From assembly GCF_037038585.1 (NCBI RefSeq), contig NC_092525.1:5682969-5746968 (forward strand): a stretch of DNA of 64,000 nucleotides, given 5' to 3'. The notes under the pieces were generated by a model. The model saw only the letters and a list, made by a program, of their open reading frames with translations. It had not been told where the DNA came from and searched no databases. Below, piece after piece: positions 1 through 64,000 of the stretch (the stretch's first letter is position 1; every line of letters starts with the position of its first letter). The translations under genes and the position numbers were made by a program. The DNA is from Patagioenas fasciata (Eukaryota; Chordata; Aves; Columbiformes; Columbidae).

Positions 1-161
1 GATTGAATCACACGTCTCTTGTGATAAAGATCAAGATGACACGATCCAGCTCCAGGTGCACTGACTCATACTCTGCTGTTGTGTTCTGTTTAGTTTGTCT
101 GGACCACTATGAAGCAACAGGAAAAAACACCCATACACAACAACAGAACATCAGTGATGCC

Positions 162-167
162 TTTATT
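162..167 (-). terminator. Polyadenylation signal AATAAA, copy 1
   Basis: AATAAA on the minus strand is followed within about 30 bases by a U/GU-rich run (TGTTGTTGTGTATGGG, then six T). This is the usual layout of a vertebrate poly(A) site. It would end a transcript containing the exon at 405-632. Confidence 0.45.
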
Positions 168-404
168 TGTTTTTAATGTATACATTATGTACACCCGAAT
201 ACTTCCAACTAGTCACAGAGGTAGAGACAAACTCACATTCTTTGAAAAAGGTATTGGCTGACTTCTACCCATTTAATCTGAGAAATTCGCTTTTCTTAGC
301 AAAATCCTTGAGAAAAACATCACTATCATAATAAAGATTATTTCCACTACGTGTCACCTGGCAAATAATTACAATTCAAACAGATTGAGTCACGTTGCAT
401 ACTT

Positions 405-632
405 TCACAGATTAGAAAGAAAGTGTTTTAACATAAATTGAATATGATGCATTAAAAATAAACTACTACTTAGTTGAATACACTCAGAAAACCAAAGACG
501 GTAAATGTCAAATGAGGGTTCCAGGTTAGAGTACCCTACAGATTTGAAGCGCGCTTTGGGGACACCCAGCGCCTCCTGTTCACTGTACATTATGTGAACT
601 GCAGCAGCTGAGACCCTGGGATGTGTGACCTG
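405..632 (-). CDS. Candidate 3' exon of an unrecognised minus-strand gene, copy 1
   Basis: On the minus strand a pyrimidine-rich stretch ends in TTTTTGCAG, a good 3' splice site, directly before a frame open for 75 codons that begins V-T-H-P-R-V-S and includes FDIYRLWFSE. The first 50 or so residues look protein-like; the rest reads like translated UTR. Two readings fit. It may be a terminal exon, because an AATAAA with a GU-rich downstream element follows at 162-167. It may instead be internal, using a donor A|GTAGT near 480 that is in phase with the exon at 46885-46952 in the tandem arrangement. I do not recognise the protein family. Confidence 0.35.
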   Translation of the reverse strand, partial: QVTHPRVSAAAVHIMYSEQEALGVPKARFKSVGYSNLEPSFDIYRLWFSECIQLSSSLFLMHHIQFMLKHFLSNL

Positions 633-1099
633 CAAAAACCATGAACATTAAAGTAACGTTTATAAATCACAAACATGTTATTTGGCTTCCTTATGGACTG
701 AAAGTGACAGGAGTGAAGCATCTAAACGTGATCTGTCCCATATTCATTCTTCACCACTCTGCAGCGGTTCTAGCAGGAGCTTCACACGTTTTCCCCCATT
801 TAAGAGTTTAGATGCCAAAATATCCCAATAAGAACCATAATGCTTGTTTACATCTAGAATTGTCTTAAATATACGTCCTCCTATGCATGTTACAGAACAC
901 TGTAACCCTGCTTTGTATATTAACATGTAATACATGCCACTAAAACCGTATCAATTAACTGACTAGACAAAGTTTTCCTCTGGAATTTAACACGTGCATT
1001 AAAACTCCTCCAAACCGAAGCCCAGCTCTACTAGGCCGTCCCACAAGCGCAGGGCTTGAGCTCTGGTTTGAGCCTGATGCCGCACTCCCCGCGCCGGGC

Positions 1100-1133
1100 T
1101 GCAGTACTGCGCTGTGGCCACCGGGCGGCAGCA
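1100..1133 (+). promoter_or_regulatory. CTCF-type site 1, copy 1
   Basis: The upstream module TGCAGTACT starts at 1100 and the core CCACCGGGCGGCAGCA lies at 1118-1133. The core resembles the CTCF consensus (CCASYAGRKGGCRSYV) with two deviations. The module-to-core distance of 18 bases is the same at the two other sites in the unit. Confidence 0.6.
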
Positions 1134-1182
1134 CCAGCGACACCCGGCGGCCGGTGCACCGCGGGAGCACCGGGGCGCCACC

Positions 1183-1192
1183 GCGCATGCGC
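1183..1192. promoter_or_regulatory. NRF-1-type palindrome GCGCATGCGC, copy 1
   Basis: This is an exact GCGCATGCGC palindrome, the core of the NRF-1 consensus, inside a CpG island 50 bases from the CTCF-type core. It is retained at 48381-48390. Confidence 0.55.
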
Positions 1193-1381
1193 GGAACCGG
1201 GGCTGAACGTCCGCGTGCGTGCGGGGGTGACCTGCACCGGGGTGACCACCCGGGATCACCCACAGCAAACGAGCCACCCGGGACAACGCGGAACAGAAAA
1301 TCCGCTCTAGAGAACCACCCCACCCAGAGAACCCTCCTCGGCGGAACCTCCCGGCGGCCCGTTCGAGCTCTCTAGTGCCCT

Positions 1382-1558
1382 ATTTGCGTAGCCACGCCTC
1401 TGATTTGCATTTCTCCGCCCCATCCTCGCCCCGCCTGTCGTTCCCACGCGCCCCGCCCCTCCTCTTATCTCTCGCAATCTGATTTGCAGGCTTCGAATCT
1501 CAATTTGCATTCTCCCCGCCTACTCACCTCCCTGCCCAAGCCCCGAGGAGATTTGCAT
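1382..1558 (+). promoter_or_regulatory. Octamer (POU-factor) motif cluster, copy 1
   Basis: ATTTGCAT occurs exactly at 1403, 1503 and 1551. One-base variants are ATTTGCGT at 1382 and ATTTGCAG at 1482. The pairs 1382/1403 and 1482/1503 each have 21-base spacing and lie exactly 100 bases apart, so a two-octamer module appears duplicated. GC boxes follow each pair. Octamers bind POU/Oct factors; binding here is inferred. Confidence 0.5.
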
Positions 1559-1795
1559 ATCCGGCACGACGCTCTGCTCTGTTCTGTTTCTATTCGACCC
1601 CATCTATTTCTATTATTTCTACTTCTATTAATTCTCGTTCTATTTCTTTTCCTGTTTTCTGTTTCTTTCCCTGCGAAGTACAAACCACACCTGATCTCAC
1701 AGATGTCCAGTGTAACCTGTAGCTGCTTTTGGTAAATATGAGCAGAACTTTACAGCACACGGTTTTCCCAGCAACATGAAGCGGAGAGCGTATTC

Positions 1796-1814
1796 AAAAA
1801 AAAAAAAAAAAAAC
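1796..1814 (+). repeat. Poly(A) run, copy 1
   Basis: A simple run of A of about 19 bases. The copy 2 equivalent near 48997 is interrupted by a C and is shorter. Confidence 0.9.
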
Positions 1815-2229
1815 AAACCACAAACACAAAGACGACACACAGCCTTGTAAGTCGGGTGATTAATTCTATTCAGTACGCTTTTACTTAAGTTAGATTACAA
1901 GAAAACTAAATTGGGCTTGCCCAGTGCCCTGTGAGTAGTAAAAACCATCACCACACAGTCACTCAGCAGAGAGCTCGCAGCAGCTCCCCGGCTGCCGCAG
2001 TTATGGAACGAAGCGTCTGGCTCGCACACAGAGCCCCCCAGCCCCTGCTCCCACCGCTGAGCAGGTGCGGGTGCCGTTCTGCTCCCTGGGGGCAGCTCAG
2101 GCCTTTCCCTCAAGTGCACCCGCCAGAGACATTTCCGGGTAAGGATGAGTTTTTTAATCCTTTCTATAAACAGAATTTCTTTGCATTTTAAAAACCTTGT
2201 ACATCACTGACATTGACTCCTATGTCTCT

Positions 2230-2550
2230 TTTTACACATACGTATGTATTTAGGGAATATATTTGATTCATAGATATCATCTATTTCCACTGTAATATAT
2301 ATCTACTTAGACATCTACACACTTGCGTATGCATTTACATGTATATATCTGCTTAAACTTATACAGAATATCTGTTTATGCTTATATATATCACCACTTA
2401 TTATCTAGAATATCCATTTATACTTACGCACCTGTTTAGCCTTCTCTTTGGACACAAATATCTTTCTAGACTTGCAGATGTTGGCATATTGTTACAATCA
2501 TATTATTACATTTATGTATATTTAGACAGAGCTATCGATTCACACTTGGC
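2230..2550 (+). repeat. AT-rich degenerate tandem repeat, copy 1
   Basis: A loose repeat of about 20-24 bases runs through this block, with phrases such as ATATCTGCTTAAACTTATAC and ATATCTGTTTATGCTTATA. No gene is seen. The copy at about 49450-49760 is almost the same. Confidence 0.45.
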
Positions 2551-3173
2551 GTGTGGCACGATGAGCAGTGACACGTGGCCAGCTGCACGGCTCAAGCACG
2601 AGGGACACCCCGACCTGCCAGGGAAAAGCGCCACTGAGAGCCAGACAGAAACAAAGTACGTCAGAGCACGCTGTCAGATATTGGGGAAACACTCATAGCA
2701 TCCAGTTGCCTCTCTTTTTCAGTTTTTAGAACAAATACCCATCTGCTTAAGTACACCTAATAAATTATATGCTGCACCTACTCAACAATTACTCTTAACT
2801 ATGGAAGTCAACATGTAAATTAGACCATTTTATTTGCTTTAAGTTTCATTGATAGGAAAATCAGTGAGATAGAAGACATGGGTTTACTTTAAAAAATAAA
2901 TAAATATCCCCATTCCTGCAGTGCAGCATAAGGCTACGAAAAAGGAGCGTCAGACTCACGAACACTTTTGGCTGCACTGCAGCACACAGGGGAACACGTT
3001 TCTGTGACCGTGACAGCTCGACTGTCGCAACCGGGAACCCAAAGCCCAGCGGTGCCACCAACCTTTGCCAGGCCTGCTGTGCTGGGCTCTGCGGAAGGAA
3101 ATGGACTTTGGTTGGTTGTTTCAAAGAAAATGAACAGTCCTGTTGTTGATGAGGCCACTGCCCACTACATCAC

Positions 3174-3259
3174 CTGGGAAGATCCACTCGGAGGGCAGGT
3201 TCATAAAATGCAGCTTCTTGGAATGAGGAATGCTGCCGTTTTGGAAGATTTCTTACCAA
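3174..3259 (-). CDS. Candidate internal exon (86 bp), copy 1
   Basis: On the minus strand an acceptor TCTGACTTCAG is followed by 86 bases ending CCCAG before a donor GTGATG. The frame L-V-R-N-L-P-K-R starts in phase 0, is open throughout (including FYEPALRVDLP) and ends with two bases left over. It is in phase with the 88-bp candidate upstream (3384-3471). The family is not recognised. Confidence 0.3.
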
Positions 3260-3383
3260 CTGAAGTCAGAACTACACACTGTAGGTTAAGAGAAAAAAGT
3301 CACTATTGAAACAATAACTCATCCAAACCACACATGGACTCACCGCCACCAGTTACGAGGCTGAAAGTGCTTCTTGGGAACAC

Positions 3384-3471
3384 CTGGCAAACACGCAGAA
3401 CAAAACCGATTTGCCCAGGTGCCTGTATCTCTGTCAGCTTTTTGAGTACTATTCTAAGATATTTTAAAAAC
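3384..3471 (-). CDS. Candidate internal exon (88 bp), copy 1
   Basis: The minus strand shows acceptor TTTTTCACTCAATAG and donor CCAG|GTGTTC; copy 2 has CCAG|GTGATC. The frame containing FLKYLRIVLKKLTEIQ is open and needs two bases from the previous exon, which the 99-bp candidate at 3820-3918 can supply. It ends in phase 0, as the 86-bp candidate requires. The pyrimidine tract is moderate. Confidence 0.3.
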
Positions 3472-3819
3472 CTATTGAGTGAAAAAGAACAAAGCATTTG
3501 TCATTGAATCAGGTTGTTTCTTCTGGACATCTGAACTCTTACAAACACCTCCTTTCCTCTTTTAGTACAAAATCATTTCCATAGTATCATCCAATAGTAA
3601 GCCCACAGAAACAGAAGATTACGCTTTCAGGAAGAGAAAATAACCAGAGGGAGGTGAGCTCTGCACAGGTGTACCGTGCTCCAGAACAGGCCTTATTTTT
3701 AGTACTTCTGGTAAAATATTTCGTATTAAAAATATAGAAGGAAAGTCGGTGCATTCTTAATGTTAAAGTCCACTCTACAAATACCTTAGGAAAAACGCAG
3801 ACACGCGTCCTAGCCGTAC

Positions 3820-3918
3820 CTTGTACGGGCAGACCGCTCTGGATTCCTTCTGTCTGTCTGGTACTTCTGTAGCAGAAGACGGGGCAACCGCGGTGAAACG
3901 GTGGCAGCAGACATCCAG
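3820..3918 (-). CDS. Candidate internal exon (99 bp), copy 1
   Basis: The minus strand has a strong acceptor (CTTTTCCTCTTTCAG) and a plausible donor (ACAAG|GTACGG) around 99 bases. All three frames are open. The frame containing RLLLQKYQTDRRNPE links in phase to the 88-bp and 86-bp candidates, giving a three-exon chain. The function is not recognised. Confidence 0.33.
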
Positions 3919-4329
3919 CTGAAAGAGGAAAAGCCCTTCAGAACAAAGCTGGAGAGGAACCTGACACTTCCTTTTTTCTTGCGAAGGCTACAGCTGAGTG
4001 GAGAAAAAAGTATTTTGCACCATCTTCAGTACAGCTGTTGATACGGCCACTGGAGCGTTTGCGTTTTTTGGATAACCAGGCCATTTTTGACTCATTGGCA
4101 GTCTGAGTTCCCTAGAACAAATTTTCCCAGATACACACAGAACACAGACATCACCCAAGTATAGCCAAGATTTCCTTCCTCGCCCTGGATGCTGTCATTG
4201 AAGAGCCCAGCAGCCCATCCGTCCTCGTGAACCGCCCCACTGAAAAAAAAAAAAAATTATCTTTTCCAGGCTGTTTCTTCAAAGGGTAAAGATATTTTAA
4301 ATTGCAGTTATCTTTTCCAACAAAGTGAT

Positions 4330-5150
4330 TTTGTGATTCCTTTGAAAAGGAGGGTAAGCTTGCCAGAGAAAGATAGCGACAGGGAGCAAGACAAGGTGAC
4401 ACAGAGAGAGGGGCAAAAGGGCCAGGGAGCAGGGCAAAGGGAAGAAGAGGCCAAAATGAGAGACAAGGAGCAGGAGACAGAGACGGTGGGAAAAATCCTA
4501 GAATGGGCAGTGGGAGAGACAGACAAAGGAGAAGTGAGCGCCGGGCTGCGGGACAGAGACAGGAAGGAGGAAACGCAGTGACAGGGAGCAGGGCAGAGCG
4601 ACAGAGAAACAAAAACAAAGAGGGAAGAGGACAGAGAAACCAGGAGTAAGACAAGGAGAAGGGCAGAGAAACAGGAACCGGGGTGGGTAGGGAGCAGGAC
4701 CAAGAGATGGGGCGAGGATGGAGATGGAGGAAGAAACCTGGGATGGCCAACAGGACAGGGAAGAATATGACTGTCGGTAGGGAGCAGGACACAGGGATAC
4801 AGCGAGAAACAATGGGACAGGGAGCAGCATTAAAGGTCAGAAAGAATAAGAGATGAACAGGAAGGAGGAATGGAACGCCGAGATGCTGAACAAAAAACAC
4901 CAGCAACAGTGAGCGAGACAAACGAATAGAGAGAGAAGGGCAAGGCAGGAAGAAGAGAGATAGGAAGGTGGGAGATAAGAGCTGCACGTACAGGTACTGA
5001 GAAGAAAAGAACAGCAGGGAACAGGCCAGAGAAACTGTGGGGAAAAAAAGAGACTGATGCAGATCAAGACAAAGATATGGAAAAGGGAAAAACAGCCATA
5101 GAAGATGGAGCAGGAGACAAAAATAAAGAGAAAAGGAGAGGTATAGGGAA
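4330..5150 (+). repeat. Purine-rich (GA) low-complexity tract, copy 1
   Basis: About 800 bases of plus-strand purine-rich sequence are built from variants of GACAGGGAGCAGGACA and GAGAAACAGG. Long open frames on both strands here (Arg/Glu/Gln-rich on plus, Ser/Pro/Leu/Cys-rich on minus) follow from the composition. Strand asymmetry of this kind can favour triplex or non-B DNA. Confidence 0.7.
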
Positions 5151-5219
5151 GCAAAATTTTAAAATAATAATAATAAACCAAAACCTCCACCAAGGAGGGG
5201 CAGGGAGGCACTAGGACGT

Positions 5220-6200
5220 GCAAGTGGGGGATGAGGCCCTGAGGGCCAGGGACTCACAGCGGCTCTCACTTTCGGTGGCTGCCACGAGGCTTCTAACAGC
5301 TCAGACGCTCCCGTCTCCTTCTCTCCTCCCTTCCTCTCCGGTAACTCGGGGCGCTCGGCCGTCCTCAGCCTAGGAGAACACGGTGGGGTGTCAGGGCTCC
5401 TACGAGACGAGGCTTCGGGGACATGGAGCCTCGCTGGCTCGCTCGCCAGGCAGCCGTCCCGCTCCAGGATACGCGCACGGACCCTGCCGCGCACGTTGGC
5501 CCCCGGCCTGCCGCACGCCGCGCAGAGGGAGCCTTCGCCACCCGGAGAGAGGGGCTCGCTCTCTCGCCCGCTGCAGGAAGCGGACATTGGGCCGACGGCC
5601 CCGCATTTCTTCCTCTTTACCTCTCCCCAACCTCTCTGGCTCCAGCAGCAGCAGCCCCCGTCCACGCACGGGACGTGCTCCCCTGTCCCTTCTCCCGCCA
5701 CGCTGTCAGACGAGCCTCGCCAGCCCGAGGCGGGCGCAGCCAACGGCATCCCCCCGGCTGGGAGTGAACGGCCACATCCTCAGCGCGGCCTCTGGGAGAG
5801 GGAGAGAAGAAGCAGCGGCCGTTAGCACCGTAGCTCACCCCTGCCCCAGCCTGCTCCTTCCGCAGGGGCCACCGGAGAGGTGCCGAGGGCCGGCTTGCCG
5901 CCTTCACGACGGGGCTTGGGAGCGGCCCAGGAACACGGGACGGGTTCGCAGGAGCTGCCGGAGCTGGGGGCGGCTGCACGGAGCGAGCGGGGCCGCGGGA
6001 GGAGGCTCGGCGGGAGCTCTGGCGAGCTGGGGACGCACCCGGCATCTGCCCCCGGCCGGCTGTCGCCTCCTGCTCCTCTGCCGCACGCTGGGGACGGAGG
6101 ACGGCGCCGCGTCTCCCACCTGGGCGCTGCTCCCCAGGTTCCATTCCCCGCCTGGGCTGGGGGGTCTGCTGAGCATCGGGCGTTCACAGCTCCCCCTCAG
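5220..6200. promoter_or_regulatory. CpG island, copy 1
   Basis: This is a GC- and CpG-rich block of about 1 kb with open frames in most of the six frames, as expected for GC-rich non-coding DNA. No convincing exon was identified and no TATA box is seen. It may be a promoter or a GC-rich first exon. Confidence 0.5.
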
Positions 6201-6916
6201 AAACACAGAAATTCCAAATTAGAGTTCAGCCTCTGAAAAAAATAGAGCAGGAGAAAGCAGAGGAATTAGTCAGAAGAAGGGACAGGAGAGCAGCTGAGCT
6301 AACGGAGGATTCGAGGGAAACGGGCCACCTCAAAACACAAGGCATCCTCAAAAAACCAGAGCAACTGCAGCAACGCCAGACAGCATTAAGACAAACTGAC
6401 ACCGTTTAGGACACGCTCAGCATAAAAGCAAACACATCCACCGGTGCAGGAAAGCATCTCACCCCTTCCCCACAGCACCGCCACAGGACACAGCCCTGTG
6501 AGGCCACGGGATGGGCTAGTACTGACACGGAGAAATAAGCTTGACAGCAGAGTCAATTACACCGTTAAGCAGGCAATGTTTCTTTCATCTGCACTGGGGA
6601 GCTCTGGGGGTCGTCCTCTGTAAGTGCTCCCACGACTGGATACTCTTGCATTGCTTATAGTCACACAGCTGCTACATATTAATTACAATTGTTTTAAATT
6701 TTGAACATACAATATATCTAGCCTAAGAAATAATTGATGAAGTTACTTATAAATGTTTAGTTTCTCACTCACAACACATCTATTAGTTAAATATAAACTA
6801 AGCTCTCAGCTTCTAAACAATGTGTTATTAAATCTTCTGTCTCCCTCTTGTCGTGCAGAAGGATCTAAAAGGTGAAAAACATCCCCTCATCGTGCAGGCG
6901 GTCAGAAAGCATTTAC

Positions 6917-7040
6917 CTCACGTGAACCGGTTAATGAAGGGTACATCTTCTATAACTTCATCGCAGTATACATTAACTTGGTAGCTTCTCTTGAATTTCC
7001 CCCTTTTCAATATACTTGCAAACTCTTTGGCAGTATAAAT
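6917..7040 (-). pseudogene. Candidate coding exon with a premature stop, copy 1
   Basis: On the minus strand an acceptor ATTTCGTAG precedes 124 bases ending before a donor GAG|GTAAAT. The frame starts I-Y-T-A-K-E-F and reads protein-like through RSYQVNVYCDEVIEDVPF, but its last full codon is TGA. In the second copy (54113-54236) the same codon is TGG. Either this copy is inactivated or the splice boundary differs. The exon ends with one base beyond codon 41. I do not recognise the family. Confidence 0.4.
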
Positions 7041-7248
7041 CTACGAAATATTATCATTTGTTACCCACTAGCAGTACCAAACAGAACACTGTAGCGTAAT
7101 GTAAGTAAAAACGACTAGCATCAAAATCAGAGTCCTAAGATCAATGCTGACAGAACTGCGAAGCCGCAGCTCCTGCCGGTTCTGGCGTTGGTTTCTGGCA
7201 CTTCTGACCGCTTCGGGTCAAACGGCGCCTCTTCCCCCGGCCGTGCGC

Positions 7249-7282
7249 TGCAGTACCCGAGTTTCGCCACAGGGCGGCAGCA
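7249..7282 (+). promoter_or_regulatory. CTCF-type site 2, copy 1
   Basis: The upstream module TGCAGTACC is at 7249 and the core CCACAGGGCGGCAGCA at 7267-7282. Orientation and 18-base spacing match site 1. Confidence 0.6.
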
Positions 7283-7892
7283 CTGAGACCGCCGCGGCAG
7301 CGCCGGGCGAGCGGTCGTGCCGCGTTTCGCGGGAACCCCGCAAAATAAACCCCAGAAAACAAACGCGACAAAACAAAAAAGCACACAGAGAGCCGCGGAA
7401 CGAAAGCCGCACGTACAGGACACAGAACCCGCCGGGCCTCGCCCCGAGCTCCCGGCGAAGCGGCGCCCGACCCGCCACGCCACCGAGCCTGCAACCGCGC
7501 CTTCGCTCCCACCAGCTTCGCCAGCTCGGCCGTAAGGGCAGCGGGAAAACCGAACCGAACGCCTCCTCACCGCGCCGGCCCATCCCACTCCCCCCGTTCC
7601 AACGGCACGGTCACCCTCGCCGCGGACGCAGTCACCTGCCGCCTCTTTCGCCGCTCCGTTCCCCTCGCACTCTCCCACCGTCCCGCGGCGGGAGGCCCCC
7701 GGCTGTCGCCTCCTTCCCCTCTGCCTTTCTGCCGCCTCCGGGGACCTCACAAAGGGCTGCCCTGAGCCGCCTACCTCCAGGTCCCCGGGCGCCGGTTGCA
7801 GCAACCGCTCCGCAACCGCCCCGACCCGCGTTCCCGTTAATTCCCGGTACCCACCCCGAGACACCACAGACCCGCTCGCCAGGACCCGCGCT

Positions 7893-8284
7893 GATTGGCT
7901 GCTTTCCACCCCATCACGCTGTCCTCCTATTGGATGCTCCGTCCGGCGCCCAGAGGCCCGCAACGCCCGCCCCTCCGGCAAAATGATAGCCTGCCTAGGC
8001 ACGTCAATCACCATTTTCTCCGCCTATCAGAGCTCGCAGTGAGGGCAGGCGCAGTAGGGAGAGAGCAGCACCCGCCCCTTTCCGCAACACGATTGACTGC
8101 CGAAGACAAGTCAATCATCATTCTCTTGGCCCATCAGTACTCGCAGTTTGCTCATGCGCAGTACGGAGCGTCCGACACCCGCCCCTCCGGCAATCTGATT
8201 GGCGGACAGAATGGCAATTGACGTGCCTTGGCAGCCTATCAGCGATCCGCCCCCCCCCCCAGCCTTCCCGCGCCATCTGATTGG
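7893..8284 (+). promoter_or_regulatory. CCAAT-box (NF-Y) cluster with 105-bp tandem promoter modules, copy 1
   Basis: ATTGG (inverted CCAAT) occurs at 7894, 7929, 8198 and 8280, with a decayed ATTGA near 8092. Modules beginning CCCGCCCCT start at 7966, 8071 and 8178, a period of 105-107 bases. They share a GC box, a CCAAT or CAATCA element, a CC(T)ATCAG element and GCAGTA. A near NRF-1 motif (CTCATGCGCA) lies at 8151-8160. Confidence 0.5.
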
Positions 8285-8706
8285 CCCGCTCTGCACCCTC
8301 ACCCGTCTGCTCTCCGCCCTGCCGGGACCCCCACGCCCTTTGCCCGCGCGGCTTCCAGCAGCCGCGTTTGAAAGGAAACAACAAACCGCGCTCCTTTGCT
8401 TTACGCTGACAAGGGGGGCGGGTGGTCACCTACCCTTAAATTCATTGTGAACAGAGAGAGCCCTAAGGAGCTCCGGCCGGCAGGTTTCTCTCCCCTGTGC
8501 CCGGGACCGAGGAGACGCCGCCGCCTCCTGCTGCCGCCTCGCCCGTTCCTCTCGCAGCGGGGCCGCCCCGGGAGAGCCGGGCGCCTCTTTTTTTCCCGGC
8601 GGCTCGTCCGACCGCTGCCCCCCCCTTTCTGACGGGCACGACCTCGGTCGCAGCGGCAGCGCCCCCCTCTTACCCCCGGCACGGGCACCGGGCGCCGCTC
8701 CCCAGC

Positions 8707-8740
8707 TGCAGTTCCGGGCTGTGGCCACCAGACGGCAGCA
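8707..8740 (+). promoter_or_regulatory. CTCF-type site 3, copy 1
   Basis: The upstream module TGCAGTTCC is at 8707 and the core CCACCAGACGGCAGCA at 8725-8740. It matches the CTCF consensus at all but one core position and is the strongest of the three. It has the same orientation and 18-base spacing as the others. Confidence 0.68.
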
Positions 8741-8869
8741 CCGAGCGCGGTCACGCAGCGCCCACGGGCCCCGCAGCGCGGGCGCTTTTTCTTGACCCGT
8801 GGGCAGCCTGAGCTCCCCGAACGCGCTTTCCCAGAGCCGCGCACATGGCAGACACACTGATAAAAGATA

Positions 8870-10300
8870 ATAGCCCGACATTGCTAAAATGTGTTTTTTT
8901 CCTAAAGATGCCTTCTGTCCTAATAAAATACATTGCCTCTCCCTGTGCCCCGTGCCTTGTCTGCAGCAGTAACTCGGCTCGCCCGCAGCTGCGGCAGCTC
9001 TGCTGCTGTTACAGGGTCAGTTCCAGCCCTTACCCTCGGCTGAGCAGCAGCCGGGCAGGCGCTGCTGCTCTGGGCGCTGCGCATCCTTCAGGAATGGTTC
9101 TCAAACGATCCTGTGCAACGATGTCCAGAGCCAGGACCCCGCGGCGGGGGGACAGGAGCACACGGCCGGGCCCTTCCCGGCTCGGGGCTGTTTCCGCAGT
9201 CGCTGTGAGTTGGTCCGTGAGCTGGAACCAACCTCCCCATGCCCCGGCCCGGCCCTTTGTCCCCGGCTTTCCCAGGGCAGCGCAGCGGGCTGGGTCACAC
9301 CAACTGTTCTCTGCTGGCACCACCCAGCCGGGTCACCTGTGTCTGCGGTTGTGGGGACACCCCACGGGCTCCCTGGAAACGGACATCACAGCACTGAGAG
9401 GGGGCGTTCAGGAGCCTCTGCGCTTTTGGGTTGGTTTGTTTGGGGTTTTTTTCCTTTTGTTGTTTTGATCGTTAGCTTCTTGTTGTCGGTTGGTTTGTTT
9501 TTAAGCTGTTACTCTATATAGCTCATCCATGGTGCTTATAGAGCATGGGTAAATCTACCCTGCTTCCTCACAGGAGACAACCATCTCGCTTTACAACAGG
9601 TGATTGAATCTGCTATAGAAAAGTTCAACCACCTCCTGTACAGCAAAGGATAAAAGAAAGTATGGATTTTTGTTGCATCTAATCCCCAATGCAAGTACCC
9701 ATTAACAATACATTAGCAGTGGGTTCCTTCAAATATTCACAGTGAAGGTAGTTCCTGGCACGATTGTATTAGCGTTCTTACTATTTTACGGGAGAAACAC
9801 AGGGCACAGCTGATTTTGCCCACGTGCAGCGCAGTGATCACACGGGTGCGGTGAACCGGGTGGAAGGCCCTAGAAAAGGAAAATCAGCCTCCGTGTGCAG
9901 GGCCAAAACAGAAATCCTTTTCAAACTGTGCCATTTTAAAAAGCTACCAGGGGTATAAAGCAGAAAAAAGAGCAGTGAATGTGTATAATGACACAATTCG
10001 ATGGTTCTCCAGTTCCATGATGTGCTCTTTTACTAACAGTGTCTGCTGGAGTGGATACCCTGGACACCAACAAGCGGGTCCTGGTGCTGTGCCCATGGTG
10101 ATTCATCCACTGTGGCCGTGGGTGTCAGGCCCTGATACAATAGACACAAAACCTTGGGAGGGAGGTGATCACAGTAGAACGCTTAAAGATAATGAGCTAG
10201 CAGACTTGATTTAATCTTTATTTAAAAATACACATGGCTGCTGTCTTTTCTACAGTTTAGGTAGGACGGGCTCCAATATCTCTATGAATTACAATACATG
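8870..10300. other. No gene recognised, copy 1
   Basis: Moderately GC-rich sequence runs to about 9400, followed by a T/G-rich stretch (9425-9510) and AT-rich DNA. No splice-bounded exon or mobile element was identified. The matching stretch is 56260-57680, where copy 2 lacks 15 bp. Confidence 0.5.
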
Positions 10301-10307
10301 ACAAAAA

Positions 10308-11545: not shown

Positions 11546-11559
11546 GTTTTACATATCCT

Positions 11560-54236: not shown

Positions 54237-54470
54237 CTACGAAATATTATCATCTCGGGTTGTGGTACAGCACAATTATTTGTTACCCACTAGCGGTACC
54301 AAACAGAACACTGTAGCGTAATGTAAGTAAAAACGACTAGCATCAAAATCAGAGTCCTAAGATCAATGCTGACAGAACTGCGAAGCCGCAGCTCCTGCCG
54401 GTTCTGGCGTTGGTTTCTGGCACTCCTGACCGCTTCGGGTCAAACGGCGCCTCTTCCCCCGGCCGTGCGC

Positions 54471-54504
54471 TGCAGTACCCGAGTTTCGCCACAGGGCGGC
54501 AGCA
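54471..54504 (+). promoter_or_regulatory. CTCF-type site 2, copy 2
   Basis: Same module, spacing and core as 7249-7282. Confidence 0.6.
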
Positions 54505-55285
54505 CTGAGACCGCCGCGGCAGCCCCGGGCGAGCGGTCGTGCCGCGTTTCGCGGGAACTCCGCAAAATAAACCCCAGAAAACAAACGCGACAAAACAAAA
54601 AAGCACACAGAGAGCCGCGGAACGAAAGCCGCACGTACAGGACACAGAACCCGCCGGGCCTCGCCCCGAGCTCCCGCCGAAGCGGCGCCCGACCCGCCAC
54701 GCCACCGAGCCTGCCACCGCGCCTTAGCTCTTGTTTGAAACGTCTCCCCCGACTAACGGGGGCTGCGCCGCTCCCGGAGGGACTGCTGTCCCGGAGGGAC
54801 ACACGGCTCCAGACCGCAAGCCTTCGGCGGACCTGCCCTCGGGGTCACACACCTCCCACCGGCTTCGCCAACTCGGCCGTAAGGGCAGGGGGGAAACCGA
54901 ACCGAACGCCTCCTCACCGCGCCGGCCCCTCCCGCTCCTCCCGTTCCAACGGCACGGTCACCCTCGCCGCGGCCGCACTCACCTGCCGCCTCTTTCGCCG
55001 CTCCGTTCCCCTCGCACTCTCCCACCGTCCCGCCGGGCTCCGCGGGCACCGACACCCGCCGCGCCCCGGAGACCTCCGCGGCGGGAGGCCCCCGGCTGTC
55101 GCCTCCTTCCCCTCTGCCTTTCTGCCGCCTCCGGGGACCTCACGAAGGGCTGCCCTGAGCCGCCTACCTCCAGGTCCCCGGGCGCCGGTTGCAGCAACCG
55201 CTCCGCAACCGCCCCGACCCCCGTTCCCGTTAATTCCCGGTACCCACCCCGAGACACCACGGACCCGCTCGCCAGGACCCGCGCT

Positions 55286-55677
55286 GATTGGCTGCTTTCC
55301 ACCCCCCCACACTGTCCTCCTATTGGATGCTCCGTCCGGTGCCCAGGAGCCAGCAACGCCCGCCCCTCCGGCAAAATGATAGCCTGCCTAGGCACGTCAA
55401 TCACCATTTTCTCCGCCTATCAGAGCTCGCAGTGAGGGCAGGCGCAGTAGGGAGAGAGCAGCACCCGCCCCTTTCCGCAACACGATTGGCTGCCGAAGAC
55501 AAGTCAATCATCATTCTCTTGGCCCATCAGTACTCGCAGTTTGCGCATGCGCAGTACGGAGCGTCCGACACCCGCCCCTCCGGCAATCTGATTGGTGGAC
55601 AGAATGGCAATTGACGTGCCTTGGTAGCCTATCAGCGATCCGCCCCCCCCCCAGCCTTCCCGCGCCATCTGATTGGC
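55286..55677 (+). promoter_or_regulatory. CCAAT-box cluster with 105-bp modules, copy 2
   Basis: Counterpart of 7893-8284. The motif decayed in copy 1 is intact here (CGATTGGCTG near 55482), and an exact NRF-1-type TGCGCATGCGCA is present at 55542-55553. Confidence 0.55.
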
Positions 55678-56098
55678 CCGCTCTGCACCCTCACCCGTCT
55701 GCTCTCCGCCCTGCCGGGACCCACACGCCCTTTGCCCGCGCGGCTTCCAGCAGCCGCGTTTGAAAGGAAACAACAAACCGCGCTCCTTTGCTTTACGCTG
55801 ACAAGCGGGGCGGGTGGTCACCTACCCTTAAATTCATTGTGAACAGAGAGAGCCCTAAGGAGCTCCGGCCGGCAGGTTTCTCTCCCCTGTGCCCGGGACC
55901 GAGGAGACGCCGCCGCCTCCTGCTGCCGCCTCGCCCGTTCCTCTCGCAGCGGGGCTGCCCCGGGAGAGCCGGGCGCCTCTTTTTTTCCCGGCGGCTCGTC
56001 CGACCGCTGCCCCCCCCTTTCTGACGGGCACGACCTCGGTCGCAGCGGCAGCGCCCCCCTCTTACCCGCGGCACGGGCACCGGGCGCCGCTCCCCAGC

Positions 56099-56132
56099 TG
56101 CAGTTCCGGGCGGTGGCCACCAGACGGCAGCA
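56099..56132 (+). promoter_or_regulatory. CTCF-type site 3, copy 2
   Basis: Module TGCAGTTCC and core CCACCAGACGGCAGCA are both unchanged from 8707-8740; one base differs in the spacer. Confidence 0.68.
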
Positions 56133-58564
56133 CCGAGCGCGGTCACGCAGCGCCCCCGGGCCCCGCAGCGCGGGCGCTTTTTCTTGACCCGTGGGCAGCC
56201 TGAGCTCCCCGAACGCGCTTTCCCAGAGCCGCGCACATGGCAGACACACTGATAAAAGATAATAGCCCGACATTGCTAAAATGTGTTTTTTTCCTAAAGA
56301 TGCCTTCTGTCCTAATAAAATACATTGCCTCTCCCTGTGCCCCGTGTCTTGTCTGCAGCAGTAACTCGGCTCGCCCGCAGCTGTGGCAGCTCTGCTGCTG
56401 CTACAGGGTCAGTTCCAGCCCTTACCCTCGGCTGAGCAGCAGCCGGGCAGGCGCTGCTGCTCTGGGCGCTGCGCATCCTTCAGGAACGGTTCTCAAACGA
56501 TCCTGTGCAACGATGTCCAGAGCCAGGACCCCGCGACGGGGGGACAGGAGCACACGGCCGGGCCCGTCCCGGCTCGGGGCTGTTTCCGCAGTCGCTGTGA
56601 GCTGATCCGTGAGCTGGAACCAACCTCCCCATGCCCCGGCCCGGCCCTTTGTCCCCGGCTTTCCCAGGGCAGCGCAGCGGGCTGGGTCACACCAACTGTT
56701 CTCTGCCGGCACCACCCAGCCGGGTCACCTGTGTCTGCGGTTGTGGGGACACCCCACGGGCTCCCTGGAAACGGACATCACAGCACTGAGAGGGGGCATT
56801 CAGGAGCCTCTGCGCTTTTGGGTTGGTTTGTTTGGGGTTTTTTTCCTTTTGTTGTTTTGATCGTTAGCTTCTTGTTGTTGGTTGGTTTGTTTTTAAGCTG
56901 TTACTCTATATAGCTCATCCATGGTGCTTATAGAGCATGGGTAAATCTACCCTGCTTCCTCACAGGAGACAACCATCTCGCTTTACAACAGGTGATTGAA
57001 TCTGCTATAGAAAAGTTCAACCACCTCCTGTACAGCAAAGGATAAAAGAAAGTATGGATTTTTGTTGCATCTAATCCACAATGCAAGTACCCATTAACAA
57101 TACATTCAAATATTCACAGTGAAGGTAGTTCCTGGCACGATTGTATTAGCATTCTTACTATTTTACGGGAGAAACACAGGGCACAGCTGATTTTGCCCAC
57201 GTGCAGCGCAGTGATCACACGGGTGCGGTGAACCGGGTGGAAGGCCCTAGAAAAGGAAAATCAGCCTCCGTGTGCAGGGCCAAAACAGAAATCCTTTTCA
57301 AACTGTGCCATTTTAAAAAGCTACCAGGGGTATAAAGCAGAAAAAAGAGCAGTGAATGTGTATAATGACACAATTTGATGGTTTTCCAGTTTCATGATGT
57401 GCTCTTTTACTAACAGTGTCTGCTGGAGTGGATACCCTGGACACCAACAAGCGGGTCCTGGTGCTGTGCCCATGGTGATTCATCCACTGTGGCCGTGGGT
57501 GTCAGGCCCTGATACAATAGACACAAAACCTTGGGAGGGAGGTGATCACAGTAGAACGCTTAAAGATAATGAGCTAGCAGACTTGATTTAATCTTTACTT
57601 AAAAATACACATGGCTGCTGTCTTTTCTACAGTTTAGGTAGGACAGGCTCCAATATCTCTATGAATTACAATACATGACAAAAATTAAAGGGGGAAAGCT
57701 TTATTTTTACAATGGTAAATACAGTCTAAATCAATTTGGGAAACAGGTAAAGGGGTGTAGCAAATGAGGCACAGACGATCCTGTTTTATCTCAGAAGGCT
57801 TTGGCGTATTTACAGCTTTAGGCACAGCGTGTCCAATCCCGTATAAAATGCACTGTCCATACCAAGTCAGCCTGTCCCCCGATATAAGGACATCAGGATG
57901 CCACCCTGCATTCACCAAGGGACAATCCTGATCTAATGTTCTCTGTGTATTCTACACCAATATCTGTTCGTCAACAAACCTTTTACTGGTTTCAATTTCT
58001 TTCCCTGATTATTCTTTTTCAAATACAATGCGTATGTAACATTTTGTATTGTGTAATATGCATTATATAATAGACAATATATGATTTAAAACATATCTCA
58101 TTATATATTACATGTAGTGCATTACTATACTACACATCTCGGGTATACCCACCCAGACCTGTGCAGCATATTAATATTATTTACAGTGGCCACCATTAAT
58201 TACAATATTCCCTGGTTGCTGTTCCCCAGGGAGTCAAACGATCCTTTTCCACTGTCACAAAATACAGCCCGGGCGGGATTTCTTCCGAATCGCTCCTGTC
58301 CCTTGTCCACTACCTATTTCACAATCACAATAACAGACAATTGGTTAACCGTAAGTATTGGACTATAAAATCACCCGAGACACAAGTAACAACAGATCAC
58401 TAAAGACACAAACAATTGTACAATTGCTAAGGCACAAACAGCAAAATCACTAAAGGTACCTTTATCAAATTACTGTTCCCTTGTTTTTCTCTTTTATTTA
58501 TTGTTTTCTCATTTTCCTCTTTAGTTTTTTATTTCTTTTTAATTTACCCAATTTACCAAAACGC

Positions 58565-58920
58565 GCAGACCCAACGCGCTGGTGTCGCCCACGTCTCGCG
58601 CAGGCAGCCTGCAAACAAACCAGACAATGAAAGTGCCTTATCTCATTGATGGGGTTTTACCCACGTCCCGAGCTGGCCCGAGGATCCGTGATCCCTTCCG
58701 GGAATTGCCCGGTGCCGGCACAAGGTCCCAGAGATCCTGGGGTCCACGGGAGGTCAGGCAGATTATCCCATCCTCGTCGCCAGAAAACGATACCGAAAAG
58801 TCGGCAAACAGACTCTTTAACATGGTTTTGAAAGTGTTAAAAAGCAGGCACTTTTATTACGGCGCGCTGGGCACTCGGGGGATCGCTCCTCTAATCCAGC
58901 GTGCGTTCCGCTTTCCTCTG
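58565..58920 (-). mobile_element. Retroviral fragment B, copy 2
   Basis: Counterpart of 11190-11545. The LTR end is at 58788 and the primer-site-like sequence at 58765-58782. Confidence 0.5.
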
Positions 58921-58934
58921 GTTTTACATATCCT

Positions 58935-60935
58935 GGAACTCCTGAAACAGCAAAACACGCCAACCACTGTTTACAGACGTCCCGTGCTCTTTCACCAGTG
59001 CGTGCAGCCGCAACGAGAAATCTGGAATGAGCGTCTACAGAAACACGTACGTATTTACCCACTTCAGAACAACGCGTTACATCAGCTGGCCGTACTTGTC
59101 AGTAATCCCTCCTGGATTAACACCCTCTTTGGATGGCACGGGTGCCGACTGTTGGCAATCAGGGCAGGACATAAGAACGCTCCTGGCCTGATCCGTTGTA
59201 ATTTGAAATTGTCGTTTTAACGACTTTGCATTCTGGTGAAAGAGTTTATGTGATAATTTAGCTTGCTCCAAGGCTTTAGGCACAGTAAGCGGCACAGCTC
59301 GTGCATCGGCCCTCCTATTGCCTTCCGCAAGAGGTCCTGGAAGGGCAGCGCGAGAGCGGATGTGCGCTGCATAAAAACCATGACGTCTATGATTTATTAG
59401 GAACCATAGCATTCTCAATTCAGCCATCAAAAGAGGATTATCCTCTTCCTTCAGAAAAGAAGCTTCCAGGCGGTTAAGTATGCCAGCTGCATAATATGAG
59501 TCAGTTACAACATTCAAAGGCTCATTACAGAACACTCAAAAGTGATCCTAACAGCTGTCAGCTCAAGAACTTGTTTGACCCCTGGTCTCCTTTTTCTACC
59601 TTGTGTTTGGAACACTGGGTATCTGAGTTTAGCCACGTAATTACAACTTTACGTGAGCGACCAAAGGCATCAGTAAATACAGTCTTGTCACTTACTGGTC
59701 GTTGCTGACAGCAGCATTTGCCCTACAATGGTAAATTACCAATTTCAGCCCACAGTTTATGTTGGGGGTAATAAACTGATATGTTCCCTGCATATGTTGC
59801 CAATGCAATCTGGAAATTCACATCTTCAGTTAATTACCATTGCAAATTCTCCTTTGTTGTAGGAATAAATATACATTCAAAGTCTGTCCCATACATAGCA
59901 TACAAACATTCTCTGCCTTTAATTATTGGGTTTGCATACATTTCTTTTATTATCCAAACTGTTTTCATTGGTGTGTGAGCTAGAAAAACCCATTCCAACT
60001 CTTAAAGAATCACTTAATGACTTGTCCCATTGAAACGGTACTGCAAACGGTTGGACGGTATTGGCTATGAGTGCCAGCCAAACTGGCAGCTGCAAATTGC
60101 GTCCCCATCCCTATTTTTGTTCAACAGCATCGAATACTTTCTATATGGCCTGCTGAGCTTTGTCATCCAATACCTGAGTAGACAATAAATTCAGGTCTCC
60201 TTTCAAAAGTGTAAAAAGTAGACACAGTTCCTCTGTGGCAATGCCCAAAATAGGTCGGAGCCAATTTATGGCTCCTAGCAATTTTGTAAGTCATTTAAGG
60301 TCATGATATTATGGAATTTAAGAGTTACTGGCTAAGGAATGATTTCTTGTTCTGTTATTTGCCACCCCAAATATTTCCATGGAGCAGTTTTCTGAATTTT
60401 TTCTTGTGCAATTTGTAATCTAGCCTTTTGTATAGCGTTACATAGGACTTGCATTACTTGTTGTAGTTCCTGCTCTTATAACATGACAAGCAAGATATCA
60501 TCCATATAACGACAGATACAAGCTGCGGGGTACAGCTTCCTCACAGGTTGTACAGCTGCTGCAACTACTGTCTTGCAAATGGTTGGACTATTTCTCATCC
60601 CTTGTGGTGATACCACCCAATGCTATCTCTTCATAGGCTCCTCTTGATTAAGTGAAGGAACACAAAATGCAAATCTGGGGGCATCCTCAGGATGTAGCAA
60701 GGTGGCACAGGTGTCCATGCCATAATTTTGATTTCACCTTGATAATCAGAGTCAATTACTCCAGGTAAAACAAACAAACCCAATTTGGTAGTAGATGATC
60801 AACCTATTAACAAAGCATGCACACTAGGCACTAAAGGCCCCCACACTCCTCTGGGAATAACCAATACCACAGCAGTAATTAATTATCATCACTGACGGGC
60901 TGGCAGCCAAGTCCAGCCCTGCACTTCCAGCTGTT
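58935..60935 (-). pseudogene. pol: pro-pol remnant of retrovirus A, copy 2
   Basis: dUTPase-like, reverse transcriptase (YMDD), RNase H and N-terminal integrase segments lie in the same order and with the same breaks as in copy 1. Confidence 0.75.
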
Positions 60936-60974
60936 CCAGGGAAGAGATCTCGGGTCATGAGTTTAGACTTGAAT

Positions 60975-62555
60975 TTATTTGATGGGGGCGGGGGAAGTCC
61001 TGTCCCCCACCTCCTGGGAAGGGTTAATTGGCTCCCCCTTTACATTAATCCTTGAATGATGTTCACTCACACAGTGCTTGCCCTTTCCCCATTTTGGACG
61101 ACCTCTAGGAGGTACAGCCTTCGAAGTCTGGCGTGCATACTTTGTGTAATCTTTCTTTACACGACCCAGTGTCCCACAACAAAAACAATTCGATTTCAGT
61201 TCTGTTCCCAATACTTGTAACTGTGCTGCTAAAGCAGCAGCTAGAGAGCTGGTATAATGTTCAGTTGACTTATGTTTTGACACACTCTCATATCTGCTAT
61301 AGTACACCTTTCCCTATTCCCCAAATCCTGCAACACACGCTGACAATCAGCATTAGCATTCTCAAAAGCCAATTATTTTAGTAACAACTCATGCGCTGTG
61401 TCATTATCAATTTGTCTCTCCAAAGCAGTTTGCAAGCGGTCTAAAAACAGCGCATAAGGTTCCTGTGATCCTTGCAAGATTTTTGAAAAGGACGTATTGG
61501 CATCTCTCCCAACCTCCAGTAACTTCCGAACCACTTTCATTGCTAGTTTTGCTATTACACCACATATATATCTCTCTGGGTTACGCAACTTGATTATCTG
61601 GCAAAGCGTGGGCACATTCCCCAGCTAAAGGACTGCAATCAATCCATCTCATCCGATATGCATTATCAACGGTCTCTGTAGTACAGTTCTCCCAAAAATC
61701 AGATAACTACTAGTCAATATACTGTACGGTTAAGATCATTTTCAACAAAGAACGCCAGTCATGTGGAGTAAGTTCGTAAGAGGAGCTTAATGCTTCAAAA
61801 ATGTATAACAAATGATAAAGTAACCCCATTTTCTTTAGCTAATGTTGGTAATTCCTTTACAACATCATACGGTAGCTGCTGAAAGCCTGGAGATTGCTGT
61901 TCACAACAGATCACTGGCCATGCCGTAACCACTTTCGAGTCTCCTGTTTTCAAAGCCTCTTCTCTACCTTTATCCCACATGGTTTAATTAGTGTGCACTT
62001 TCGGTTGCAAAGTAACATCCGGGGGGAATAAATCAGGCTCTTACTCTGGGTCCGTCGGGCCAGGATCAAGGGGCTTGTCAGGCGACTCCCACAAACCATC
62101 ATTTGCCAAAAGTGTTCACTGTAGTGTACATGCAGGGGCTTTGTTATCAGCCAATCCTTTATCCACTACTACATCTGTGGTCAGTGCATTTTTGCCTAAT
62201 CTATCTACAGGATCCCCCTCCTTCCCTGGCAAGGGAGGAGCAGAAGGTTCACAATTAGTTGCAACCCGCGCAACTACTTCCTTCTGAGTCGCTATTAAAG
62301 CAGACATAATTTTTGCCCAAGTAGATAAATATTCACAAGCAGCTTTATCTCCAGTTGCTGCCTGTTCATATAATTCTCGTTCAACTTTCTGCCATGCCTC
62401 CAACTAAAATGTACCAGTTGTAGGAAAGTCCAGCACATGATCAGCAAGCCTTTCTTATAAAGTCATTAATCGGACTACTGGTACATTGTGATTTTGCTTT
62501 CTTAATAAAAGTTGAAGGACATCTAGGGTTTGTTTGGTTCAAGGGATAACTTCCC
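60975..62555 (-). pseudogene. gag: gag remnant of retrovirus A, copy 2
   Basis: Counterpart of 13600-15180. The zinc-knuckle His position is Arg here and Cys in copy 1, consistent with successive changes at one codon. Confidence 0.75.
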
Positions 62556-63174
62556 TCCTATGGTTCCAAATTGCTCATCTTTTCTTGCTGATGGGCGCAC
62601 GCTGTGGTTTCTGTTTCCTGGCTCTGTTTCCCTGTCCTTGTTCAATTGGGCTTTGCCACCAGAACGGCTGCTGCCTTTACAGCCGCACTCAAAGTCCCTG
62701 TTCGGGTGCCATTTGTAGCGAATGTGGCACCGACTCTCTTTTAAGGTGAGACAAGAGACATTTGTTACAAACTCAGGTTTGCATTTATACTCGCTATGAT
62801 GCTTGCTCAAGCATTTGCTGATTTGGTAAGTTCGTCATAACATAAGTGATATATTGTTACTGCCATAAAAGCACCGTTGTCTATACCACAAGCTACCCCC
62901 GTCATCCCCCTTGATGTATCATTCCTGTACCAATCCCTCTGTCCTCGATGTATCACGTAGCATACAGTACTTGCTTCTTGTGTTATTCCACTAATGATTG
63001 TTCTCACGCTGTCAACTCCCACAGTTTCTCATAGGCCCAATGTCAGAATACTGCCACAATCACCTTTCTCCTTCCTTGAGCTCTCCTGACCTGCGGTTCC
63101 ACCACCGTTGTCTTCTTTCTTGATCCCTCTTGACTCACAGGTGCCCTCCAATCCTCTTTCTCGATCACTCTTCC

Positions 63175-64000
63175 TCACAGGTTCGCCTCCTTCCTTGCTT
63201 TTCCTTTGCACGCTGCTCCACCTGAAGAGAAACACACAGAGGACTGAGCTACATCAGCCCCAGGGCACTACAGTCAGACGGGGGCTGCATCTGGGGGATG
63301 ACACCTCCCCACACCCCACAGCGTGCCCGCCTTGCCTTGGCCCCGGCCCCTCACACCGCCCTTATCCTCAGCTCTGCCCCTCCGCTGCAGCACAGCTTCC
63401 GCACATGCCCTGCTCAGGCTGGACCCCAGTTTCATGGGTTAGAGATATCATAGCTCAGTACAAATCCCCACAGTCCTCACCTGCTGTTTGGTGCTTGCGG
63501 AGGGTCACACTCACTGTGCCCCAGGACACTGGCCCTGCCCGGCCCTGCGGGAGTGTCTGGAGCTGCCGCTGGCTGGTTCTCCAGCTTTAGCGTCACCCGC
63601 AGAAGCCCGCTCTCCTCAGCTCTGCACACCCATCCAGTTGCGCCGCCCAGGCAAAGTCAGCTTCACCCTCTGCTCTACACCTCACCTGCAAACAACCAAC
63701 TTTCAACTGACAACTGTCCAAAACCCACCGACAAACTCTCCAAATCTCAGCCTTTCGTTTGCAACTGCTGCCTCTAGTGCATCTCACAGACAAGCCTTCA
63801 AAATCCCCTCATCCTGCAATAACACTCCAGCACTGATCACCTGCGGGAACAACTACCACAATACCATGCAAACACCAACCAGTTCTGGCACGGAAATATC
63901 ACTTTCTCCTCAAGATTCCACCCGACACCAACTGCTGACAAACACGCTGTCCTCACCAAAGCCAAACGCTGCAACAACCAGCGACAACTCAAATTTGCGT
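63175..64000. repeat. Array unit 1 start in 47-kb copy 2
   Basis: This matches 15800-16627. The window ends at the start of the 84-codon frame region. Confidence 0.88.

What the first reader, a model, noticed from the sequence alone, without database searches (positions are those of the whole stretch)
1..64000. 47.2-kb tandem unit carrying its own CpG islands, insulator-type sites and gene fragments
1-16627 is repeated in the same orientation from 47199. A unit this large with several CpG islands and split exons resembles an ampliconic or macrosatellite locus more than a simple satellite. Differences include indels of 3 to about 171 bp, so the copies are not a trivial duplication of one read.
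Basis: seen in the sequence. Interest (0 to 1): 0.8.

Follow-up and report, generated by a model that had tools for sequence, protein, structure and literature searches.

The report
Bird tandem repeat with CTCF-motif CpG islands
A stretch of what is most likely bird DNA, at least 16.6 kb long, is repeated 47 kb further on and carries several CpG islands, two of them with matches to the binding site of the genome-folding protein CTCF; it looks like a large, mostly non-coding tandem repeat of the kind known from mammals, although the window shows only about one and a third copies.

Summary
The repeat is real: 1-16624 recurs head-to-tail at 47199-64000 with 209 mismatches in 16582 aligned bases (1.26%) and 13 internal indels. 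It runs off both window edges, so 47199 is no junction, the phase is unknown, and "47.2-kb unit" is likely but not shown. Inside lies a second array of 6.0-, 7.0- and 8.6-kb units plus a partial one.

The DNA is most likely avian: a broken endogenous retrovirus has its best matches in two pigeons, 76-77% identity. No host gene was recognised: 0 of 255 open frames match Pfam at E 0.01, so "split exons" is unsupported.

The insulator claim holds at motif level. Each copy has three two-part CTCF motifs, all on the + strand, in two CpG islands: 6 matches, 0.01 expected, though one core is weak. CpG-to-TpG/CpA change since duplication is lower in those islands (14/296 sites) than elsewhere (48/421; P=0.0017), as if they stay unmethylated in the germ line.

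Best reading: a CTCF/CpG-island macrosatellite-like array that works like DXZ4. Array length, CTCF binding and chromosome could not be tested; a false haplotype duplication is not excluded.

The parts
1..16624 (+). copy 1 of the repeated segment (left end lies outside the window)
   Evidence: matches 47199-64000, 1.26% mismatches
47199..64000 (+). copy 2 of the repeated segment (right end lies outside the window)
801..1700 (.). CpG island 1 (GC 0.54, CpG o/e 1.0), holds CTCF motif 1; copy 2 at 47951-48900
1099..1134 (+). two-part CTCF motif 1 (core 14.9 bits); copy 2 at 48297-48332, one difference, in the last base of the upstream part
5001..6450 (.). CpG island 2 (CpG o/e 0.73), no CTCF motif found, CpG decay like the non-island part; copy 2 at 52201-53700
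7001..9300 (.). CpG island 3 (GC 0.65, CpG o/e 0.95), holds CTCF motifs 2 and 3; copy 2 at 54201-56950 with 125- and 46-bp insertions
7248..7283 (+). two-part CTCF motif 2 (weak core, 11.2 bits); copy 2 at 54470-54505, identical
8706..8741 (+). two-part CTCF motif 3 (core 18.5 bits); copy 2 at 56098-56133, one difference, in the gap between the two parts
11445..15028 (-). broken class II-like endogenous retrovirus: gag capsid piece, RNase H/integrase zinc domain, weak integrase core; lies in the repeated segment, so also in copy 2
   Evidence: Gag_p24_C 1e-8 and Integrase_Zn 5.6e-13 above cut-off; rve 6e-4 and RNase_H 0.011 below; pigeon POK18 proteins
16058..22058 (+). nested unit U1 (6.0 kb)
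   Evidence: 1.7-4.4% from the other units, by stretch compared
22059..29091 (+). nested unit U2 (7.0 kb)
29092..37718 (+). nested unit U3 (8.6 kb)
   Evidence: 0.35-1.1% from U2
37719..38573 (+). nested unit U4, cut short; first 568 bp 0.2-0.35% from U2 and U3, whole 855 bp 2.6-2.7%
32120..33769 (+). 56/112-bp pyrimidine-rich minisatellite of U3; a shorter one in U2 (25110-25485), related short arrays elsewhere in the nested region
38751..40250 (.). CpG island 4 (GC 0.65, CpG o/e 0.87) with a 52-bp minisatellite at 38803-39213

Best explanation
The window lies inside a head-to-tail array, or at least a tandem duplication, in what is most likely a bird genome, with a period of about 47.2 kb. 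The unit is mostly non-coding for host proteins. Its likely active parts are two CpG islands that together hold three two-part CTCF motifs facing the same way. The islands seem to have stayed unmethylated in the germ line after the duplication while the rest of the unit was methylated. The likely mechanism: CTCF binds the islands, stops cohesin from one side and helps to keep the islands open, so that an array of N copies would give 3N same-facing CTCF sites, a domain boundary or loop anchor of the DXZ4 kind. Shown: the repeat, the motifs, the lower CpG decay. Inferred: array length, CTCF binding, germ-line methylation state, boundary function.
For: Direct repeat reaching both window edges. 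Two-part motif: 6 matches, three per copy, 0.01 expected from 100 whole-window shuffles; with local 500-bp shuffles of 1-47198 the mean was 0.01 and 0 of 200 reached three. All three have a 6-bp gap between upstream 10-mer and 19-mer core; the literature gives 5 bp as the commonest gap and 6 bp as frequent (PMC9004084, passages). Chicken CTCF uses the same two-part motif (PMC5504073, passages). The upstream part is in 13-15% of CTCF sites globally but in most insulator and barrier sites (PMC12885311, passages). CpG<->TpG/CpA differences between the copies: 14 of 296 CpG sites in the two motif islands, 36 of 308 outside islands, 12 of 113 in the island without motif; P = 0.0017 against the other two pooled, 0.0019 and 0.040 against each, while the motif islands pooled are not less diverged overall (1.63% against 1.17%). 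No host protein domain in 255 open frames.
Against: Only 1.35 spacings are visible, so an array of many units is not shown. No ChIP, methylation or contact data. The core of motif 2 scores only 11.2 bits. The core scan alone gives a modest excess: 18 sites of 11 bits or more against 9.2 expected (at most 13 in 20 simulations), 7 of 14 or more against 2.25 (at most 5); of those 7, three are minisatellite copies without the upstream part and four are motifs 1 and 3 in the two copies, and repeats inflate such counts. Counting every CpG change, not only those to TpG/CpA, weakens the contrast to 24/296 against 57/421, P = 0.03, because island 3 has 10 other CpG changes. Promoter-linked CTCF sites are common in vertebrate genomes (recalled), so these may be ordinary sites copied along with the segment.
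Confidence: 0.5

Rival explanations
1. The two copies are the two alleles of one locus, wrongly joined in tandem by the assembler (false haplotype duplication).
For: What is seen fits: one and a third copies, 1.26% mismatches with small indels. No read data and no whole genome were available to test it.
Against: 1.26% is high for two alleles of a bird (recalled general values are mostly below 1%). The same window contains a further tandem expansion, with U2 and U3 0.35-1.1% apart, so the locus does duplicate; this is indirect. Divergence is uneven along the pair, 0.5-2.6% per kb, chi2 62 on 16 df, and 48 with CpG sites left out, which fits a patchy paralogue history somewhat better than alleles but does not prove it.
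Confidence: 0.2
2. An ampliconic unit like the testis-expressed amplicons of chicken dot chromosomes or HINT1W on chicken W, kept for a gene or long non-coding RNA that I could not recognise.
For: [quoted passage not shown] CpG islands 1 and 3 look like promoters. In 5 of 24 two-kb blocks the longest open frame is as long as in at most 1 of 60 shuffles. A lncRNA would escape protein searches.
Against: No Pfam domain at E 0.01 in 255 frames; no HINT1 match (human sequence recalled); no protein homologue for one nested-unit frame or one island frame (only the 7991 candidates sharing most words were scored). Of the 5 long-frame blocks, one is pyrimidine-rich, one holds the 52-bp minisatellite and one has its frame opposite the retroviral pol region.
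Confidence: 0.25
3. Two copies of a segmental duplication of 16.6 kb or more that happen to lie 47 kb apart, with single-copy DNA between them, not a repeating 47-kb unit.
For: 38574-47198 matches nothing else in the window apart from its own 52-bp minisatellite, and 16.6-47.2 kb has no partner at 47-kb spacing within the window.
Against: The match runs off both window edges, so the duplicated block is longer than seen on both sides. The missing partner would lie outside the window in any case.
Confidence: 0.15

Closest known systems
DXZ4 macrosatellite of mammals (PMC3491370, passages)
   Same: Large tandem unit with a CTCF site in each unit; in human GC-rich with a promoter beside the CTCF site; CpG hypomethylated in one state (inactive X).
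   Different: The mouse monomer is 3.8 kb and the human one about 3 kb (the latter recalled), X-linked; here the spacing is about 47 kb, most likely avian, with three motifs per copy, a nested array and unknown chromosome. No homology was tested or is claimed.
Human 1q23.3 tRNA tandem repeat (PMC4041453, passages)
   Same: GC-rich tandem unit with two CTCF sites per unit, proposed as a boundary element.
   Different: 7.3-kb unit with tRNA genes; here ARAGORN found no tRNA.
Chicken dot-chromosome amplicons and HINT1W array (PMC9974502, passages)
   Same: Tandem amplification in a bird; the HINT1W unit is 5.6 kb and its region 53.6% GC, near the nested unit here in size and GC.
   Different: Those carry genes or lncRNAs; no HINT1 match here.
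Chicken Z macrosatellite (named in PMC7397634, passages)
   Same: Large bird tandem repeat, transcribed on lampbrush chromosomes.
   Different: Its sequence was not in hand, so no comparison was made. Its unit length of about 24 kb is recalled.

Membership tests
macrosatellite | kilobase-scale unit repeated head to tail, 47-kb level | tested here: inconclusive
   direct repeat at 47.2-kb spacing, but only 1.35 spacings visible and no complete second unit
macrosatellite | kilobase-scale unit repeated head to tail, nested level | tested here: met
   three units of 6.0-8.6 kb and a partial fourth
macrosatellite | array of many units | tested here: inconclusive
   window too short, both ends open; own genome not held
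macrosatellite | copy number varies between individuals | not testable with these tools
   no reads or population data
DXZ4-type CTCF tandem repeat | CTCF site in every unit | tested here: met
   motif level only and for the two copies seen: 3 two-part motifs in each; binding not tested
DXZ4-type CTCF tandem repeat | CTCF part hypomethylated in at least one state | tested here: inconclusive
   indirect trace only: CpG to TpG/CpA 14/296 in motif islands against 48/421 elsewhere, P = 0.0017; 24/296 against 57/421 if all CpG changes count, P = 0.03
DXZ4 itself | homology to the mammalian X-linked repeat | not tested
   no DXZ4 sequence fetched; membership is not claimed
HINT1W amplicon | holds a HINT1 copy | tested here: not met
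   best tblastn E-value 1.1, a 10-residue match; query was human HINT1 from memory
ampliconic gene family | unit carries a host gene | tested here: inconclusive
   0 of 255 frames match Pfam at E 0.01; short exons and lncRNAs would be missed
tRNA-type tandem repeat | tRNA genes in the unit | tested here: not met
   ARAGORN finds 0; no Rfam match at gathering score or at E 0.5

The most novel reading that the evidence does not exclude
A bird counterpart, by convergence, of DXZ4: a many-copy array with 47-kb units, each with three same-facing insulator-grade CTCF sites in islands kept unmethylated in the germ line, acting as a chromosome-scale loop anchor or boundary, possibly on a sex or dot chromosome.
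Probability: 0.15. Interest if true: 0.75.

Novelty: new variant of a known kind. Interest (0 to 1): 0.42.

Why it matters
CTCF-bearing macrosatellites are known to me mainly from mammals (recalled), where DXZ4 is thought to help fold the inactive X. A search for papers holding CTCF, macrosatellite, tandem and avian listed five, and by their titles and abstract beginnings none describes a bird array of this kind (listings only, and the library lacks most subscription journals). If the array is real and bound by CTCF, one could ask whether large tandem CTCF arrays evolved as folding elements outside mammals. If it is a haplotype artefact, it is a caution for counts of bird segmental duplications.

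Tried and rejected
HINT1W as cargo: rejected. Host genes: Pfam scans of 30 hand-picked frames inside and outside the retrovirus gave retroviral domains and weak matches. The non-retroviral ones were below the curated cut-offs (the best outside the retroviral region was DUF4693 to 42066-42455:+, E 0.029), except one marginal match, DUF1145 to 12547-12735:- (21.4 bits, cut-off 21), which lies inside the retroviral region and was not pursued. Of 753 frames of 48 aa or more in the window, 294 lay in 1-10949, 22059-29091 or 38574-47260. Of these 294, 255 were scanned: 128 of 128 from the left part, 82 of 82 from the right part and 45 of 84 from nested unit U2; the 39 left out lie between 23874 and 27557, minisatellite frames or frames overlapping ones that were kept. 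Protein homologues: a retroviral frame found 10 proteins, of which the 5 named ones are from birds and 5 are unnamed, three of these 81-87% identical over 57-61% of the query; a nested-unit frame and an island frame found none. Structural RNAs and tRNAs: none. Solved structures: none for one island frame. A nested-unit 26-mer in viral and prokaryote contig collections: none. The bird CR1 repeat-end pattern (recalled) was not found, nor were the mammalian repeat patterns I tried, so they did not help to name the host. Coding-potential ranking (recalled tables) gave no frame that I found convincing. Reverse CCAAT boxes in island 3: 4 against 2.8 expected, not pursued. CTCF-like cores in the minisatellites (24892, 31922, 32812) lack the upstream part and were not counted as sites. 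A pairwise BLAST inside one search printed no rows and was replaced. A text search for the upstream CTCF consensus found no paper.
Full report
WHAT WAS CHECKED. The window was compared with itself. Copy 1 (1-16624) matches copy 2 (47199-64000) in the same orientation. A global alignment of the two has 16582 aligned bases, 209 mismatches (1.26%) and 14 gaps, of which the last is only the end trim. The apparent 171-bp difference is two insertions in copy 2, 125 and 46 bp, on either side of a shared piece of about 181 bp. The match begins at base 1 and ends at base 64000, so both ends lie outside. Position 47199 is set by the window edge; there is no junction to see there. What is shown is a segment of 16.6 kb or more at 47.2-kb spacing; a repeating unit of 47.2 kb is the likely reading.

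NESTED ARRAY. Between 16058 and 38573 lies a second tandem array with unit starts at 16058, 22059, 29092 and 37719, that is units of 6.0, 7.0 and 8.6 kb and a partial one. Pyrimidine-rich 56/112-bp minisatellites of differing length lie in it. Over the first 568 bp, U2, U3 and U4 differ by 0.2-0.5%, U1 differs from them by 2.9-3.1%, and U1 of copy 1 differs from U1 of copy 2 by 0.9%, while U1 of copy 2 is 2.3-2.5% from U2-U4. Over longer stretches U2 and U3 differ by 0.35-1.1% and U1 from either by 1.7-2.4%; over 855 bp the partial U4 is 2.6-2.7% from U2 and U3 and 4.4% from U1, so its last part differs. U1 was thus probably a separate unit before the 47-kb duplication, and U2 and U3 are young or homogenised.

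ORIGIN. No genome is held for the window. A retroviral frame (11705-12160, minus) found 10 proteins; the two best are from pigeons, 77% and 76% identity (Caloenas nicobarica and Alopecoenas, now Pampusana, beccarii, both Columbidae), the other three named ones carry bird names, and five are unnamed. The DNA is therefore most likely avian; this rests on the retrovirus alone. Recalled repeat-end patterns of birds and mammals were both absent. The species is unknown. The retrovirus is broken and class II-like: a capsid piece (Gag_p24_C, 1e-8), an integrase zinc domain (5.6e-13), and weak RNase H and integrase core matches below Pfam's cut-offs. Each of the three full nested units holds a piece in the other orientation that is about 80% alike to 14930-15656.

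HOST GENES. None was recognised. Of 294 open frames of 48 aa or more in 1-10949, one nested unit and 38574-47260, 255 were scanned one by one against Pfam; 0 matched at E 0.01. Searches in 5.8 billion proteins with a nested-unit frame and an island frame found nothing (the second scored only the 7991 best candidates). In 5 of 24 two-kb blocks the longest frame was as long as in at most 1 of 60 shuffles, in a sixth in 2 of 60: 4-6 kb (pyrimidine-rich strand), 6-8 kb (island 3), 10-12 kb (opposite the retroviral pol region), 20-22 kb, 38-40 kb (52-bp minisatellite and island 4) and 40-42 kb. These are unexplained in part and keep a hidden gene possible. Short exons and non-coding RNAs would be missed.

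CTCF SITES. A scan with the CTCF core matrix (recalled) gave 18 sites of 11 bits or more against 9.2 expected, and 7 of 14 or more against 2.25, from 20 simulations, a modest excess; of the 7, three are minisatellite copies and four are motifs 1 and 3 in the two copies. The core of motif 2 scores 11.2 bits. The two-part motif stands out more: the upstream part TGCAGTNC followed by the core occurs at 1100, 7249 and 8707 and at the three corresponding places of copy 2, 6 matches against 0.01 expected; with local shuffles 0 of 200 reached three in 1-47198. I wrote this pattern from the recalled consensus after seeing the sites; a stricter earlier one matched only motif 2 in both copies. All three lie on the + strand, have a 6-bp gap and fall in islands 1 and 3. 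Between the copies they differ by one base at the end of the upstream part, by none, and by one base in the gap. Chicken CTCF binds the same two-part motif (PMC5504073, passages); a gap of 5 bp is the commonest and 6 bp frequent (PMC9004084, passages); the upstream part is found in most insulator and barrier sites and in 13-15% of sites globally (PMC12885311, passages).

GERM-LINE METHYLATION TRACE. Methylated CpGs mutate to TpG or CpA. Between the two copies, 36 of 308 CpG sites outside islands and 12 of 113 in island 2 differ that way, 5.7 and 6.2 times the rate of other C/G transitions. In islands 1 and 3 it was 3 of 65 and 11 of 231, only 2.1 and 1.7 times. Pooled, 14/296 against 48/421 gives P = 0.0017; against non-island sites alone P = 0.0019, against island 2 alone P = 0.040. 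The motif islands pooled are not less diverged overall (1.63% against 1.17%), and their other C/G transitions are not fewer (19 of 1404 against 55 of 5443, P = 0.31), so this is not just slower change. If every CpG change is counted, the contrast is 24/296 against 57/421, P = 0.03. The simplest account is that islands 1 and 3 stayed unmethylated in the germ line after duplication. The grouping was made after the motifs were found, the counts are small, and gene conversion between copies could blur them.

READING. The parts fit a mostly non-coding macrosatellite-like unit with a CTCF and CpG-island module, which would work like DXZ4 (PMC3491370, passages) or the human 1q23.3 tRNA repeat (PMC4041453, passages). 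It is not claimed to be a homologue of either. In birds the nearest kinds are the amplicons of chicken dot chromosomes and the HINT1W array (PMC9974502, passages) and the Z macrosatellite (PMC7397634, passages). A false haplotype duplication cannot be excluded here.

Noticed in passing
16058-38573: Nested tandem array of 6.0-, 7.0- and 8.6-kb units; U2 and U3 are 0.35-1.1% apart while U1 is 1.7-4.4% from the others, so either a recent expansion or local homogenisation.
   Followed up: partly
18000-38000: Strong strand asymmetry in parts (GC skew to -0.37, AT skew to -0.42): pyrimidine-rich 56/112-bp minisatellites that would give purine-rich RNA if transcribed leftwards.
   Followed up: no
1-16624 against 47199-64000: Divergence between the copies is very uneven, 0.5% (12-14 kb) to 2.6% (7-8 kb), chi2 62 on 16 df.
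   Followed up: partly
11168-11842: A 225-residue open frame on the + strand opposite the retroviral pol region, longer than in all 60 shuffles of its 2-kb block; a frame of the same length from its first start codon is kept in copy 2.
   Followed up: no
7960-8186: Two diverged copies (about 75%) of a roughly 105-bp module inside CpG island 3, with a 48-bp inverted match at 8194-8241.
   Followed up: no
20903-21640, 27943-28673, 36561-37300: Pieces in each full nested unit that are about 80% alike, inverted, to 14930-15656 at the upstream end of the retroviral region.
   Followed up: no
38803-39213: 52-bp minisatellite at the edge of CpG island 4.
   Followed up: no
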